Of a DNA stretch of 27,443 bases, positions 21,341 through 25,050 are shown one piece after another; within the stretch, counting starts at the first letter, position 1, and each line of letters begins with the position of its first letter. The notes beneath the pieces were generated by a model that saw only the letters and a program-made list of their open reading frames with translations, made no database searches and was not told the DNA's origin. Origin of the DNA: an uncultured Holophagaceae bacterium (lineage in GTDB: Bacteria > Acidobacteriota > Holophagae > Holophagales > Holophagaceae); the NCBI GenBank assembly GCA_903927605.1, contig CAIYNT010000079.1, positions 1-27,443 on the forward strand, read 5' to 3'. The translations under genes were made by a program, and so were the position numbers.

Positions 21341-21411
21341 CACCGCCAAGGCGCCAAGAACTGATCTCAAGGACGCCTTCTTTTCTTGGCGCTCTTGGCG
21401 TCTTGGCGGTG
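21341..21411. repeat. Large imperfect inverted repeat built of TTGGCG units
   Basis: The left arm CACCGCCAAGGCGCCAAGAA (21341-21360) pairs with a right arm (21383-21411) that contains three TTGGCG copies spaced 8-9 nt and ends TTGGCGGTG. It fills the gap between the convergent NFACT-like and SPOR genes. Similar CACCGCCAAGxCGCCAAG palindromes are known as dispersed intergenic elements in many bacteria. It could also act as a bidirectional terminator. Confidence 0.7.
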
Positions 21412-21431: not shown

Positions 21432-21977
21432 CTATTCCACCTTCAGGGCGAAGGGTTTGAAGCCGGCTTTCTTCAGCTTCTCGGCGGTCTTGTCCATGGT
21501 GGCGCGGTCGGCGGGCTTCGTCAGACGCACTTTCAGTTGTCCCTTCTCTTTCACGGTGGTCGTGGCAAAGCCAGCGGCCTTGGCCTTGTCCACCGTGCGC
21601 TTGGCTTCGGCGGCATCGGCGGTGGCCAACAACTGCAAGGTCCATGCCTCTGCCCGGGTGGTCTTCTCGGGTGCCTTCACCTCGGATTTTGCTGGCGCCT
21701 TGGCCCCTTCCCTGGGTGCGGTGGCGTCCACCTTCTGCGTGGGGACCAACTTGTCCGGTCCGTCGCCTTCGAAGATCTTGAGCTGATCCACCAGGGGTTC
21801 CGGCAGGTCCTTCAGTTCCTCTTCCACGCCCTTCTGCATGGGCCGCCGCAGGGCCGCGCTCTGCTTGCCCACCTGCACACCGAGGACGAAGGCCAGGGTC
21901 AGCAGGCCCACGCCCACGCCGGCCACCCAGAGGATGGACTGGCTGTTGATGCTGATCTGGTCGCGCTGGCTCATCAC
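21432..21977 (-). CDS. SPOR-domain membrane protein
   Basis: The 181-residue protein has one N-terminal membrane helix (ILWVAGVGVGLLTLAFVLGVQVG), a charged Ala/Pro/Lys-rich linker, and a C-terminal SPOR domain (about 110-181: WTLQLLATADAAEAKRTVDKAKAAGFATTTVKEKGQLKVRL). SPOR domains bind denuded peptidoglycan at division septa. The start (ATGATG) overlaps the stop of the ketosynthase-like gene, so it is last in the ACP-DH-KS-KS operon by position. A functional link to that pathway is not evident. Either of the two consecutive ATGs could be used. Confidence 0.85.
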   Translation of the reverse strand: MMSQRDQISINSQSILWVAGVGVGLLTLAFVLGVQVGKQSAALRRPMQKGVEEELKDLPEPLVDQLKIFEGDGPDKLVPTQKVDATAPREGAKAPAKSEVKAPEKTTRAEAWTLQLLATADAAEAKRTVDKAKAAGFATTTVKEKGQLKVRLTKPADRATMDKTAEKLKKAGFKPFALKVE

Positions 21978-23053
21978 CGCTCCAGCCTAACGTCTTCCAG
22001 GATCGCCGCGAACTGGCCGCCATTGCTGGCAGGGGCCGTGATGACCACGCGATCCGCGGGTTCCAGCAGGGCGGCCGCGAGCAGCTGTCCGCCCGAGCCG
22101 CCGAACTCGCCCCACAGGCGCTTGGGATGAACCGCAGCGGGCCAGTCTGGATGGGAGCAGGCCAGGCTGGACTCCGGGGCATCGAGGCGGGACAGCCCAT
22201 TGCTCCCGCCGATCCGGCGGTCCACGAAAACAGCGCCCAGGGCCGTGACAGCTCTGGATAAAGCGGTGTACCGTCCCGCCTCCGTGTTGTCAGGTGTGGA
22301 GCGGGAGGCCAGGGCGCGCAGCACGGCGCGGGGCCGGGCCCCACGGGTCTCTGCATGCAGGCGGGACTCCAGGAGGAAAGCCTGGGCCCCTTCGCCCGGC
22401 AGGAAACCCCGACCGGAACCGACCTCGGGATTCCCATGGCGATCCATCAGCCGTGCTCCCCGACAGACGTCCACCAGCAGGGGAAAGAGGCCATCGGTGC
22501 CAATTACCAGGGCCACCTCCGCCCATCCCGCGCGGAGCCAGCGCACGGCCTGATCCAGGGCGGCGAAGGCGGCGTTCTCCCGATCCACGAAGGTGGCGCT
22601 GGGGCCTTTCAGGCCGAAGGCAAGGGCCAAGTGCCCGCTGGCGGCATTGGCCACGGAGTTGGGGAAGATCAGGGGCGAGGCCCCCTCTGGACCCCGCTGG
22701 AGGTAGGGCCGCATGAAGGCTTCGCTGGCCTCGCTGCCACCGGTCAGGGTACCCACGGCCACGGCGATGCGCTCGCCGATCGGTTTCGGGTCGAGGGCCG
22801 CGTCCTGGAAAGCCTGGTACGCCGCCACCCAGGCGAAGCGGGAGGGGCGGTCCAGACGCCGCAGCTGCATGGGGGGGATGATGCCCGCCGGGTTGAAGGA
22901 TGTGCAGGCAGCACCGCGGCCGAGGCCCAAGGACTCGGGCAACTCGGCGAAGCAGGGCACTCCCGAGGCGAGGCTCGCGCGGGCGGCCTCGATGCCATCC
23001 CCGCAGGGCAGCACCAGGCCCAGGCCCGTGATGACGAGGTCCAGGTCGCTCAC
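21974..23053 (-). CDS. Catalytically dead ketosynthase-like protein (KS-beta / chain-length-factor type)
   Basis: The 359-residue product has the thiolase-fold ketosynthase frame: LDLVITGLGLVLPCGDG at the start, FPNSVANAASGHLALAFGLKGPSATF, then WAEVALVIGTDGL and GRGFLPGEGAQAFLLE. The three active-site residues are missing. The nucleophile segment reads VDRENAAF, with Glu159 where the Cys of ATACSS should be; the HGTxT segment is absent; and GHTLGAAG reads GEFGGSGG. In type II polyketide systems such partners (KS-beta/CLF) heterodimerise with an active KS and set chain length. The GTG at 23053 overlaps the active KS stop (GTGA) and has GGGAGG upstream; an ATG at 23065 is possible. The adjacent intact KS is the obvious partner. 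Confidence 0.82.
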   Translation of the reverse strand: MSDLDLVITGLGLVLPCGDGIEAARASLASGVPCFAELPESLGLGRGAACTSFNPAGIIPPMQLRRLDRPSRFAWVAAYQAFQDAALDPKPIGERIAVAVGTLTGGSEASEAFMRPYLQRGPEGASPLIFPNSVANAASGHLALAFGLKGPSATFVDRENAAFAALDQAVRWLRAGWAEVALVIGTDGLFPLLVDVCRGARLMDRHGNPEVGSGRGFLPGEGAQAFLLESRLHAETRGARPRAVLRALASRSTPDNTEAGRYTALSRAVTALGAVFVDRRIGGSNGLSRLDAPESSLACSHPDWPAAVHPKRLWGEFGGSGGQLLAAALLEPADRVVITAPASNGGQFAAILEDVRLER

Positions 23054-24240
23054 CGGCCCTCCCATCGCCGCAAGGCCAGGCTCAGGTTGTTGCCGCCGAA
23101 GGCGAAGGCGTTCACCAGCGCGGCGCGCACGCGCCGCGCCTTCGCGTGCAGGGGAGTGCAGTCCAGGTCGCAGAGGGGATCGGGCTCCTCCAAGCGGAGG
23201 GTGGGACTCACCACCTGATCCCGCAAGGCCAGGATGGCGGCCGCCACTCCAAAAGCGCCGGCAGCGCCCAGAGTGTGGCCGAACTGGCTCTTGGTGCTGG
23301 TGAGGGAAACGGCTTCGGCGGCCGACCCGAGGGCCCGCCGGATGGCCAGGCACTCGGCGCCATCGTTGGCCGCGGTGGCGGTGCCGTGGGCGGAGACCAG
23401 ATCGACCTCGGCTGCCTCCAACTGGCCCGTGCGCAGGGCCATGCCCATAGCCCGGGCCGCGCCTTCACCCTCGGGATGGGGAGCCGTGGGATGGTGGGCG
23501 TCCATGCTGGCGCCGTAGCCCAGCACCTCGGCGTAGATCACGGCACCCCGGGTCTTGGCGCGGTCCAGGGTTTCGAGGACGAGCTGCACGGCGCCCTCGC
23601 CCAGGTTCAGACCGGCGCGGTCGAGGCTGAAGGGGCGGCACTTCCGGGGGTCCATGGCCCGGAGGCAGGCGAACCCGGCGTAGGTGGTCCGGCAGAGGCT
23701 TTCGGCACCGCCCGCCACCGCGAGATCGAGTTCCCCGGCGGCCAGCCGTTCCCAGGCCTGGCCCAGGGCCAGCAGGCTGGAGGAGCAGGCATTCATGACC
23801 GTGCCCCGGGGGCCGGTGGCGCCGAGGCGGCAGGCCAGAGCATCGGTGACCGTGCTGGGGCTCTGGTAGGCGGGTTCCGCCGCCTTGCCACAACGCCCCG
23901 CCAGGCGCTCCTCCAGGAAGGCCTCGGCGATGGGGAGGCCGCTGGTGCCAGCGCCCTGGAAGACACCGAGGCGGTCCGGGTCATCACTAGGCTGGAAGCC
24001 TTCCAGGGCCTCGTCCAGGGCCTTCAGGGCCATGCGCTCGCAGAGGGTCTGGTGGCGGGCCGCGTTCATGGCCACCTGGCCGGCGATCTGGCCGGGTTCC
24101 AGGGGCAGAGAAAGCCGGGTCAAGGGCCCCAGGCCATCCTGGCCCGCGAGCATGGCGGACCAGGTCCCCTCCCGGTCCAGAGCCAGGGAAGACACGATGC
24201 CGAGGCCGGTGACGACGACCCGATGGGGGGGGCGGTTCAT
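23050..24240 (-). CDS. Beta-ketoacyl-ACP synthase II (FabF-like), active KS
   Basis: The 396-residue cytoplasmic enzyme has all ketosynthase catalytic residues: Cys152 in NACSSS, His285 in AHGTAT, Lys317 in STKSQF and His322 in GHTLGAAG. The N-terminal VVVTGLGIVSSL and the C-terminal NAFAFGGNNLSLAL are also typical. It would catalyse decarboxylative Claisen condensation of malonyl-ACP with an acyl chain. FabF of primary metabolism usually sits with fabD/fabG/acpP, which are absent here, and the next gene is an inactive KS-like partner. A specialised fatty-acid or polyene/polyketide role is therefore more likely than housekeeping FabF. The start overlaps the dehydratase stop (ATGA). Confidence 0.92.
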   Translation of the reverse strand: MNRPPHRVVVTGLGIVSSLALDREGTWSAMLAGQDGLGPLTRLSLPLEPGQIAGQVAMNAARHQTLCERMALKALDEALEGFQPSDDPDRLGVFQGAGTSGLPIAEAFLEERLAGRCGKAAEPAYQSPSTVTDALACRLGATGPRGTVMNACSSSLLALGQAWERLAAGELDLAVAGGAESLCRTTYAGFACLRAMDPRKCRPFSLDRAGLNLGEGAVQLVLETLDRAKTRGAVIYAEVLGYGASMDAHHPTAPHPEGEGAARAMGMALRTGQLEAAEVDLVSAHGTATAANDGAECLAIRRALGSAAEAVSLTSTKSQFGHTLGAAGAFGVAAAILALRDQVVSPTLRLEEPDPLCDLDCTPLHAKARRVRAALVNAFAFGGNNLSLALRRWEGR

Positions 24241-24644
24241 AGGCGCTTGACCAGCAGGGCCGCGGTGCAGAGCTCCCGCCCGTCGCAGCTTACGGTGCCC
24301 CGGAGCTTCATGAGCCCGGCGAAGGCGCCCTCCGCCTGGACCTCCAGACGCAGCCGGTCCCCGGGCAGGGCGGGGGCCTTGAAGCGGGCGTCCTGCACTC
24401 CGGCCAGGAAGATCGTTGCCCCATGCAGGGATTCGGACTCCAGGAAACCTCCCGCCTGGGCCAGCATCTCCAGCAACAGGACGCCGGGTACCAGGGGATG
24501 TCCCTGGAAGTGGCCCTGGAGGTAGGGTTCCCCACTCGTGACCAGCTTCTCAGCGACCACGCGCCGGCCCGGCTCCCGTTCCAGCACCCGGTCCACCAGC
24601 AGGAAGGGGTAGCGGTGCGGCAGGTGGGCCGGGACATCCGTCAT
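24237..24644 (-). CDS. FabZ-like 3-hydroxyacyl-ACP dehydratase (hotdog fold)
   Basis: The 135-residue protein matches FabZ-type dehydratases: LPHRYPFLLVDRVLEREPGRRVVAEK, GHFQGHPLVPGVLLLEMLAQAGG with catalytic His45 and Glu59, then a FKAPALPGDRLRLEVQ strand. These enzymes remove water from 3-hydroxyacyl-ACP to give trans-2-enoyl-ACP in the cytoplasm. The length is within the FabZ range. It stands between the ACP (10-nt gap) and the active KS (4-nt overlap), so the three are likely co-translated. Because no ketoreductase or enoyl reductase accompanies it, the pathway must borrow those or use shared enzymes. No good SD was seen, so coupling to the ACP gene is likely. Confidence 0.92.
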   Translation of the reverse strand: MTDVPAHLPHRYPFLLVDRVLEREPGRRVVAEKLVTSGEPYLQGHFQGHPLVPGVLLLEMLAQAGGFLESESLHGATIFLAGVQDARFKAPALPGDRLRLEVQAEGAFAGLMKLRGTVSCDGRELCTAALLVKRL

Positions 24645-24654
24645 GGGGGCAGCG

Positions 24655-24912
24655 TCAGACCTTGGCTTGCTCAGCGATGAAGTCCGTCAGGGCCTGCACG
24701 GACTTGAAGGCCCTCAGACCTGCGGCCTCATCCTCGATCTTCACGCCGAACACCTGCTCGATGCCCAGCACCAGCTCCAGGGCATCAATGGAGTCCAGGC
24801 CCAGGCCGTCACCGAAGAGAGGAGCGCCGTCCTCTATCTGGTCTGGGGTCATGCCCTCGAGCTTCAAGCGCTCGATGATCATCTCTTTGACGCGCAGCTT
24901 GAGGTCGCTCAT
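24655..24912 (-). CDS. Acyl carrier protein
   Basis: This 85-residue acidic protein has the ACP four-helix pattern and a phosphopantetheine attachment site, Ser41 in GLGLDSIDALELV. It is first in the minus-strand cassette and carries the growing chain for the ketosynthases downstream. The segment DSIDALEL, rather than the DSLDTVEL of housekeeping AcpP, suggests a specialised carrier. A TAGAAT box lies 30 nt before the ATG. Confidence 0.93.
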   Translation of the reverse strand: MSDLKLRVKEMIIERLKLEGMTPDQIEDGAPLFGDGLGLDSIDALELVLGIEQVFGVKIEDEAAGLRAFKSVQALTDFIAEQAKV

Positions 24913-24942
24913 GGGTTTCCCGGCAGGAGGGTGGAAGGGTTG

Positions 24943-24948
24943 ATTCTA
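24943..24948 (-). promoter_or_regulatory. Candidate -10 box of the ACP/KS cassette
   Basis: TAGAAT on the minus strand, 30 nt before the ACP ATG; it matches 5 of 6 bases of TATAAT. The nuoA promoter lies on the other strand within about 60 nt, so the two operons are divergent from a shared 138-nt region. Confidence 0.42.
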
Positions 24949-25010
24949 GCCCGGCGTGAGGGCCGGGGGTGCTTGTGATCTTGACACGGCCAACTCCCAT
25001 TCAAAGGGCG

Positions 25011-25016
25011 CTAAGC
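25011..25016 (+). promoter_or_regulatory. Candidate -10 box of the nuo operon
   Basis: TAAGCT in the context CGCTAAGCTGGAC, 34 nt before the nuoA ATG. It resembles the dsbD box context (GGCTAGACTGGAG). A perfect TTGACA lies upstream at 24980-24985, but 25 nt away, too far for a normal -35. Confidence 0.38.
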
Positions 25017-25050
25017 TGGACCTTCGCGGAACCCTCCGCCCGAGAGCGCC

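What the first reader, a model, noticed from the sequence alone, without database searches (positions are those of the whole stretch)
21432..24912. Minimal ACP-dehydratase-KS-KSbeta cassette with a SPOR gene, lacking ketoreductase and acyltransferase
Four lipid/polyketide genes are packed with 4-nt overlaps: ACP, FabZ-like dehydratase, an intact ketosynthase and a dead ketosynthase partner, followed by a SPOR protein. KS/KS-beta pairs with a dedicated ACP and dehydratase are the core of aryl-polyene and type II polyketide pathways. Here the ketoreductase, priming enzyme, acyltransferase and exporter normally found alongside are absent. It could be a stripped-down polyene or unusual fatty-acid module that borrows housekeeping enzymes.
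Basis: partly seen in the sequence, partly recalled or inferred. Interest (0 to 1): 0.7.

Follow-up and report, generated by a model that had tools for sequence, protein, structure and literature searches.

The report
Stripped-down polyene-type fatty-acid gene cassette
Soil and sediment bacteria related to Geothrix carry a conserved four-gene set (a carrier protein, a dehydratase, a working ketosynthase and its catalytically dead partner) that looks like a pared-down version of bacterial polyene-lipid pathways and probably borrows its missing steps from ordinary fatty-acid synthesis; what it makes is unknown.

Summary
The minus strand encodes ACP, a FabZ-type dehydratase, an intact ketosynthase (KSα) and a ketosynthase without its Cys (KSβ), then a SPOR gene. 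The source is Geothrix-like.

The same order recurs in 45 of 45 related loci as far as contigs reach, 42 of them complete beside a divergent nuoA. KSα lies outside FabF (AU p 0.0086) and FabB/ApeR. It is nearest to KSα proteins of other Acidobacteriota, whose loci often hold a KR-like gene and some an AMP-ligase or MMPL exporter. KSβ has Glu for Cys in 46 of 46 rows of this group and Glu/Asp in 15 of 15 other Acidobacteriota. The dedicated KR profile finds only FabG-level matches in 7 of 7 cassette-bearing genomes.

SPOR is not part of it: in 6 of 6 genomes without the cassette it sits next to nuoA.

Most likely this is a KSα-KSβ module that borrows FabD and FabG and builds an unsaturated or polyenoyl chain. 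[quoted passage not shown] The product is unknown.

The parts
24655..24912 (-). Acyl carrier protein, 85 aa, first gene of the cassette; Ser in LGLDSIDAL
   Evidence: PP-binding PF00550 39.5 bits; best NCBIfam hit PRK09184 68.4 bits, just under its 70-bit cut-off; LGLDSIDAL in 44 of 44 rows; 45-53% identical to ACPs of ten related Acidobacteriota loci, 44% to an ACP beside the KS/KSβ pair of L117, 33% to the housekeeping ACP of G. fermentans.
24237..24644 (-). FabZ-type 3-hydroxyacyl-ACP dehydratase, 135 aa, His and Glu of the FabZ motifs kept
   Evidence: NCBIfam NF000582 FabZ 132.5 bits over cut-off 113, but TIGR01750 125.8 under 155.15; 37-41% identical to the four housekeeping FabZ of G001-G004, 42% to a FabZ-like protein of G006 (L126), 23-33% to ApeP/ApeI and a gamma-proteobacterial hotdog protein.
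23050..24240 (-). KSα: intact ketosynthase, 396 aa (Cys152, His285, Lys317, His322)
   Evidence: Cys, both His and Lys kept in 45 of 45 rows; trees; AF2 model pLDDT 89.7.
21974..23053 (-). KSβ: ketosynthase-like partner, 359 aa, Cys replaced by Glu159, second His by Glu (PKxxWGE)
   Evidence: Glu159 in 46 of 46 rows; AF2 model pLDDT 85.4, pTM 0.88, with the KS fold, TM 0.81 (query) to FabF and 0.76/0.79 (query/target) to AntE 6smo_C.
21432..21977 (-). SPOR-domain protein, 181 aa: co-directional neighbour, judged not to belong to the biosynthetic cassette
   Evidence: PF05036 44.4 bits; next to divergent nuoA in 6 of 6 examined genomes that lack the other four genes.
24913..25050 (.). Intergenic stretch between the cassette and divergent nuoA; presumed to hold both promoters (inferred)
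   Evidence: no sigma-70-type consensus found; divergent nuoA in 43 of 43 loci whose contig reaches the ACP.

Best explanation
The four genes ACP-DH-KSα-KSβ form a small type II module whose KS pair is kin to aryl-polyene-like loci of other Acidobacteriota. FabD loads malonate on the dedicated ACP. A KSα-KSβ heterodimer elongates, with KSα catalytic and KSβ shaping the pocket and the chain length. Housekeeping FabG reduces the 3-keto group and the module's own FabZ-type enzyme dehydrates it. With no enoyl reductase in the module, an unsaturated or conjugated polyenoyl chain of set length would build up on the ACP and be passed on, probably to an envelope lipid, by an unlinked acyltransferase. 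Shown here: gene content, order and conservation, active-site residues, kinship of KSα, lack of a clear dedicated KR in seven relatives, independence from SPOR and from ApeR-bearing aryl-polyene clusters. Inferred: heterodimer, FabD/FabG borrowing, absence of enoyl reduction, product, destination.
For: Same order in 45 of 45 loci as far as contigs reach. KSα outside FabF: AU p 0.0086; union with the adjacent KS/KSβ group (11 rows, mostly Bacteroidota and Holophagae) not rejected, p 0.161. With 13 KSα of other Acidobacteriota added, the clade is sister to 6 of them at 96/85. Of those 15 loci, 12 have KSα adjacent to KSβ and one has it 5.5 kb away; 10 have a similar ACP and 9 a KR-like hit; among 20 neighbouring proteins that I picked for Pfam, AMP-binding ligases occur in five loci, MMPL in three, GT2 in two, a LpxL-type acyltransferase domain in one, 4HBT thioesterases in two. 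The KR profile gives 416-425 bits on two of its own members but at most 192 bits, the FabG range, in 7 of 7 cassette genomes. FabG over cut-off in 4 of 4 Geothrix genomes. KSβ lost Cys in 46 of 46 rows yet is modelled as a whole KS fold, and its distances follow KSα (r 0.93), as expected of a kept partner. Precedent: with ApeO-ApeC as the only KS, fully elongated polyene formed in vitro (PMC8358021 passages).
Against: No starter enzyme, acyltransferase or exporter is linked, and extra genes beside the cassette in two divergent loci (L033, L042) look unrelated by eye. KSα and KSβ are 142-439 nt apart in 9 of 45 loci, so the tight packing is not universal. The DH is FabZ-like, not ApeI/ApeP-like. 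KSα's best structural and PDB sequence matches are FabF proteins. Not every related locus has the polyene-like parts: 6 of 15 show no KR-like hit, G500 (L182) has no better KR match than 164.5 bits, and some scanned neighbours are unrelated (TatD, radical SAM, a CRP-type regulator). An enoyl reductase could be borrowed as easily as FabG, giving a saturated chain. KSα-KSβ pairing was not modelled.
Confidence: 0.5

Rival explanations
1. Very-long-chain fatty-acid module, working like the rhizobial acpXL locus: dedicated ACP, DH and two KS proteins extend long acyl chains with borrowed FabG and FabI for lipid A or another envelope lipid.
For: S. meliloti acpXL-fabZXL-fabF2XL-fabF1XL is one operon with the same order and no KR (PMC11901934 passages). 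It explains the missing KR, starter enzyme and exporter at once, and the long conservation.
Against: Scores against the families taken (by recall) as the rhizobial proteins are far under cut-off: PRK06508 18.1 of 83, PRK06501 197.6 of 629, PRK06519 44.4 of 320. No lpxXL- or adh-like gene among the genes read beside the cassette in the window. The nearest KSα kin are in loci with polyene-like parts. FabF2XL/FabF1XL sequences could not be fetched for the tree (one search found none).
Confidence: 0.25
2. Auxiliary fatty-acid synthase: a second ACP/FabZ/FabF set giving ordinary fatty acids under some condition, KSβ being a regulatory subunit.
For: Enzyme types are those of FAS II; fold and best PDB hits of KSα are FabF; beside the respiratory nuo operon in 43 of 43 loci that reach it.
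Against: KSα outside FabF (p 0.0086); separate housekeeping FabF and FabZ in 4 of 4 Geothrix genomes and a separate ACP beside FabF in one looked at; a conserved Cys-less partner is typical of type II PKS and not of FAS II (recalled).
Confidence: 0.12
3. Cyclising module like cispentacin AmcB/E/F/G: ACP, DH-like, KS and partner make a small ring with no KR needed.
For: Similar enzyme types: ACP, KS, Cys-less-type partner and a FabZ-like cyclising enzyme (PMC10698177 passages; model names); weak hits to AmcB, AmcE, AmcF, AmcG models.
Against: All four under cut-off: 38.6 of 80, 54.3 of 140, 197.8 of 325, 17.5 of 80; the DH scores 132 bits as FabZ; no ligase or hydrolase in the cassette.
Confidence: 0.06
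4. Supplier of a KS-KSβ pair to an unlinked aryl-polyene cluster in the same genome.
For: G. oryzisoli and 8 other genomes hold both the KSβ orthologue and an ApeR orthologue.
Against: 43 of 52 genomes with the KSβ orthologue have no ApeR match at 1e-90; 13 genomes have ApeR without the KSβ orthologue.
Confidence: 0.04

Closest known systems
KSα-KSβ loci of other Acidobacteriota found here (L178-L192)
   Same: KSα 38-45% identical and KSβ 29-37% over the aligned part, adjacent in 12 of 15, with the KSβ Cys changed to Glu/Asp in 15 of 15; ACP 45-53% identical in 10 of 15.
   Different: Nine of 15 add a KR-like gene and some an AMP-ligase, MMPL exporter, GT2, acyltransferase, methyltransferase or thioesterase; the Geothrix-type cassette has none and carries a FabZ-type DH.
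Aryl polyene clusters (ApeO-ApeC, ApeR, ApeQ, ApeI/P, starter enzyme, MMPL)
   Same: KS with a Cys-less partner, ACP, DH; KSα not rejected as sister of the adjacent-KS group.
   Different: No KR, second KS, ApeI/ApeP, starter enzyme or exporter; such clusters exist separately in the same class.
Rhizobial VLCFA operon acpXL-fabZXL-fabF2XL-fabF1XL
   Same: Gene order and absence of KR.
   Different: Sequence families far under cut-off (model identity recalled); no lpxXL- or adh-like neighbour read in the window.
Highly reducing type II PKS (ishigamide Iga11-Iga12 and kin)
   Different: Those systems include a KR (PMC10698177 passages); FabF chains score as high, so the fold does not discriminate.
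NodF-NodE
   Same: Dedicated ACP and KS that divert housekeeping FAS (recalled).
   Different: No DH or KSβ beside them in the record seen; a KSα+NodE clade is rejected, p 0.0134.

Membership tests
Housekeeping FabF/FabB | KSα falls in the FabF or FabB clade | tested here: not met
   KSα of this group is its own clade, 100/100; union with FabF rejected, AU p 0.0086; FabB/ApeR a separate clade.
Housekeeping FabF/FabB | NCBIfam fabF equivalog cut-off | tested here: not met
   TIGR03150 327.6 bits of 493.75.
Aryl polyene cluster | KS with Cys-less partner of the ApeO-ApeC kind | tested here: inconclusive
   The pair is there; kinship with the adjacent-KS group not rejected (p 0.161) but not shown.
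Aryl polyene cluster | KR, second KS (ApeR), ApeI/ApeP, starter enzyme and MMPL exporter in the cluster | tested here: not met
   None in the cassette; no ApeR match at 1e-90 in 43 of 52 cassette genomes.
Highly reducing type II PKS | KS-CLF heterodimer | not testable with these tools
   Sequence and monomer fold fit; no complex was modelled.
Highly reducing type II PKS | Dedicated KR and DH | tested here: not met
   DH present; no KR in the cassette, and the KR profile of related loci finds only FabG-level matches in 7 of 7 cassette genomes.
Rhizobial VLCFA (acpXL) locus | Gene order ACP-FabZ-KS-KS without KR | tested here: met
Rhizobial VLCFA (acpXL) locus | AcpXL, FabF1XL, FabF2XL sequence families (model identity recalled) | tested here: not met
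   18.1 of 83, 197.6 of 629, 44.4 of 320 bits.
Cispentacin AmcB/E/F/G type | NCBIfam Amc equivalogs | tested here: not met
   All four under cut-off.

The most novel reading that the evidence does not exclude
Acidobacteriota share a KSα-KSβ subfamily in which the dead partner carries Glu/Asp, not Gln or Cys, at the catalytic position. KSβ decarboxylates malonyl-ACP and self-primes the chain, so that in Geothrix and its kin four genes plus FabD and FabG suffice for a dedicated polyenoyl or unusual envelope lipid.
Probability: 0.18. Interest if true: 0.75.

Novelty: new variant of a known kind. Interest (0 to 1): 0.5.

Why it matters
If right, it is a very small KS-KSβ module, kept over long evolutionary spans in a bacterial family, and it shows how a polyene-type pathway can be pared down to its condensing core while leaning on fatty-acid synthesis. 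It also defines a testable KSβ subfamily (Cys to Glu/Asp) across Acidobacteriota, a common soil phylum, and points to an undescribed lipid in Geothrix, a known iron reducer.

Tried and rejected
SPOR as part of the module: rejected by six nuoA-SPOR sites without the cassette. In five the SPOR match starts about 85-125 nt from nuoA; in G059 only its C-terminal domain matches, 500 nt away. 'Without' means no tblastn hit of the four proteins in the 6.4-7.7 kb fetched and no KSβ orthologue in the genome. Two further genomes (G066, G044) were in the nuoB search, but their best hits were only 52-56% identical and their sites were not examined.

Reading the cassette as an aryl-polyene cluster split over the genome: rejected as a general case, 43 of 52 cassette genomes lacking an ApeR match at 1e-90. 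The ammonia-lyase search alone was uninformative, since 87 of 93 genomes match PF00221, presumably mostly hutH; second copies do lie in the clusters of G073, G074 and G078.

Adjacent inserted genes as clues to the product: stretches in L042, L033, L039, L018, L029, L035 and L014 were read by eye, no recurring partner.

Rhizobial FabF1XL/FabF2XL as tree references: NF005084 matched 0 of 198 Pseudomonadota genomes at 1e-30 and 0 of 14 controls, so the search is silent, not negative. ACP and DH trees are mostly unresolved. The KSα fold search does not separate FabF from KS-CLF proteins. PDB 9s5h/9s5i, a two-KS entry that ranks high for KSα, was not traced: one search counted 3 papers with the terms and listed one, unrelated. 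No paper joining 'Holophag' and 'aryl polyene'; three joining 'Geothrix' and 'polyketide synthase', seen as a listing only. PMC10132072 (passages) names Acidobacteria among phyla with KS-CLF, so such pairs are catalogued at phylum level. PMC13362970 (passages) was looked at for colony colour and fatty acids; nothing was used. Promoter and terminator scan: nothing above chance.

Limits. Labels ApeO/ApeC/ApeR for unnamed loci, and the name Holophagae for the class of G. fermentans, are my inference. One search drew 297 genomes evenly and scored at most 6 candidates per genome. The KR profile was built from five loci, two of them in the genomes that scored highest; one search also took in G183, a handle typed by mistake (227.6 bits, not one of the related loci), and G500, a related genome with only 164.5 bits. 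KR-like hits are to one short-chain reductase and need not all be dedicated. The 20 proteins were my pick of neighbours. The KSα trees left out KSβ-type rows and one partial row (26 of 83), then four long rows, then these four and seven more. AU groups other than FabF were chosen. Gap sizes come from tblastn ends. Genome completeness is not told, so absences may be assembly gaps. The dehydratase motif was listed for the 12 commonest forms only (28 of 44 rows).
Full report
What is there. Five co-directional genes lie on the minus strand: ACP (24912-24655), FabZ-type dehydratase (24644-24237), KSα (24240-23050), KSβ (23053-21974) and a SPOR-domain protein (21977-21432). Three junctions are 4-nt overlaps; ACP to DH is a 10-nt gap. 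Upstream, nuoA-D run the other way; downstream a convergent NFACT-domain gene ends the block. Protein hits place the window near Geothrix (Holophagaceae): KSβ is 97% identical to its best, unnamed hit and 73-86% to the other 119 listed of 345, many named Geothrix or Holophagaceae where named.

Conservation. A pattern-based scan of one genome for each of 84,980 species with the KSβ alignment gave 76 loci: 45 at 55-87% identity, titled Geothrix, Holophagaceae or (nine) only Acidobacteria, and 31 at 25-33%, mostly Bacteroidota. In the 45 the order is the same as far as contigs reach; 42 hold all five genes beside divergent nuoA, one more lacks only SPOR at a contig end, and two are cut inside KSα. 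Spacing is mostly tight, but KSα and KSβ are 142-439 nt apart in 9 of 45 and SPOR lies 1.5 kb off in L042. Pairwise distances of KSα and KSβ correlate at 0.93, and with NuoA at 0.86 and 0.87, which fits vertical inheritance. In the class of G. fermentans, 52 of 93 genomes have the KSβ orthologue (matches better than 1e-130).

SPOR is a neighbour. In six genomes without the cassette (G058, G059, G069, G074, G076, G078) the SPOR orthologue lies next to nuoA in the same divergent arrangement, with no hit of the four proteins (in G059 only the SPOR domain matches, 500 nt from nuoA). A NuoA+NuoB+SPOR tree mixes these with cassette-bearing lineages and needs 3 changes of state, at least 2 by starred branches. 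So the cassette is a discrete four-gene unit that was lost or gained more than once, and some lineages do without it.

Descent. In trees of 57 and 53 KS rows the KSα of this group form one clade (100/100) outside FabF, outside FabB/ApeR, and apart from the adjacent-KS group. Holding them with FabF is rejected (AU p 0.0086); holding them with the adjacent KS/KSβ group is not (p 0.161); with NodE it is (p 0.0134). A phylum search (297 genomes drawn, at most six candidates scored each) gave 38 genomes with a hit at 1e-35: 23 of the class searched before and 15 others; all 15 were fetched. Thirteen of the 15 have a KSα in the locus, 12 adjacent to KSβ and one (L190) 5.5 kb away; all 15 KSβ have Glu (11) or Asp (4) at the Cys position and Glu at the second His. 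With these KSα added, the window's clade is sister to six of them (96/85). Ten of the 15 loci hold an ACP 45-53% identical to the window's and nine a KR-like hit. Among 20 neighbouring proteins that I picked for Pfam, AMP-binding ligases occur in five loci, MMPL in three, GT2 in two, an LpxL-type acyltransferase domain in one, 4HBT thioesterases in two, methyltransferases in two; others were unrelated (TatD, radical SAM, a CRP-type regulator) and one had no match. Taken together these are aryl-polyene-like gene sets, though not in every locus.

Missing steps. The KR profile from five of those loci scores 416-425 bits on its own members in G403 and G433, and at most 192 bits in seven cassette-bearing genomes, the level of ordinary FabG; the related genome G500 also has only 164.5. 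FabG over its cut-off is present in 4 of 4 Geothrix genomes, as are separate FabF and FabZ. So if the module needs ketoreduction, it most likely borrows it.

Relation to true aryl-polyene clusters. Genomes of the class without the cassette carry such clusters: L118, L119 and L121 (G073, G074, G078) hold an aromatic ammonia lyase with an ApeR orthologue, and Pfam confirms MMPL in L119 and an ApeI-like dehydratase in L121. L117 (G058) has KR, an ApeP-like dehydratase, an ApeR-like KS and a separate ACP-KS-KSβ set, but no ammonia lyase in the 18 kb fetched. An ApeR profile finds 22 of 93 genomes: 9 with the KSβ orthologue, 13 without; 43 have the KSβ orthologue alone. The two systems are therefore separable.

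Mechanism. The best reading is a KSα-KSβ module on its own ACP with its own FabZ, borrowing FabD and FabG and skipping enoyl reduction, so that an unsaturated or polyenoyl chain results (confidence 0.5). [quoted passage not shown] meliloti acpXL-fabZXL-fabF2XL-fabF1XL is one operon in the same order without a KR (PMC11901934, passages); sequence families do not support membership. A cyclising Amc-like module (PMC10698177, passages) and auxiliary FAS are less likely. No tool here can tell the product.

Verdict. Observation confirmed, with one junction corrected. New variant of a known kind.

Noticed in passing
window 21341-21411: A 19-nt inverted repeat (95% complementary, 33 nt apart) rich in CGCCAAG lies between the convergent ends of the SPOR and NFACT genes; the motif CTTGGCGNNCTTGGCG occurs once in the window (0.01 expected, one mismatch allowed) and exactly in none of 196 loci. 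Possibly a bidirectional terminator or a REP-like element.
   Followed up: partly
L118, L119, L121, L117 and L127 (G. oryzisoli, G004): Aryl-polyene-type gene sets in the class of Geothrix: with an ammonia lyase in L118, L119 and L121, without one in the stretches fetched of L117 and L127. No paper in the library joins Holophag- and aryl polyene.
   Followed up: partly
L029 12288-16907 (-): A 1539-aa protein, read by eye as AMP-binding/NRPS-like with hexapeptide-acetyltransferase-like repeats and a phosphopantetheinyl-transferase-like end, sits between the SPOR and NFACT genes.
   Followed up: no
L125 7690-10409 (-) (G010): Another ACP-KS-KSβ set of a different kind, whose KSβ also has Glu near the catalytic position (CGESSG).
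   Followed up: no
L018, L026, L029, L031: The stretch between SPOR and NFACT is a variable insertion site of about 5 kb: by eye a two-component pair and a transporter in L018, a large NRPS-like gene in L029; L026 and L031 by gap size only.
   Followed up: partly
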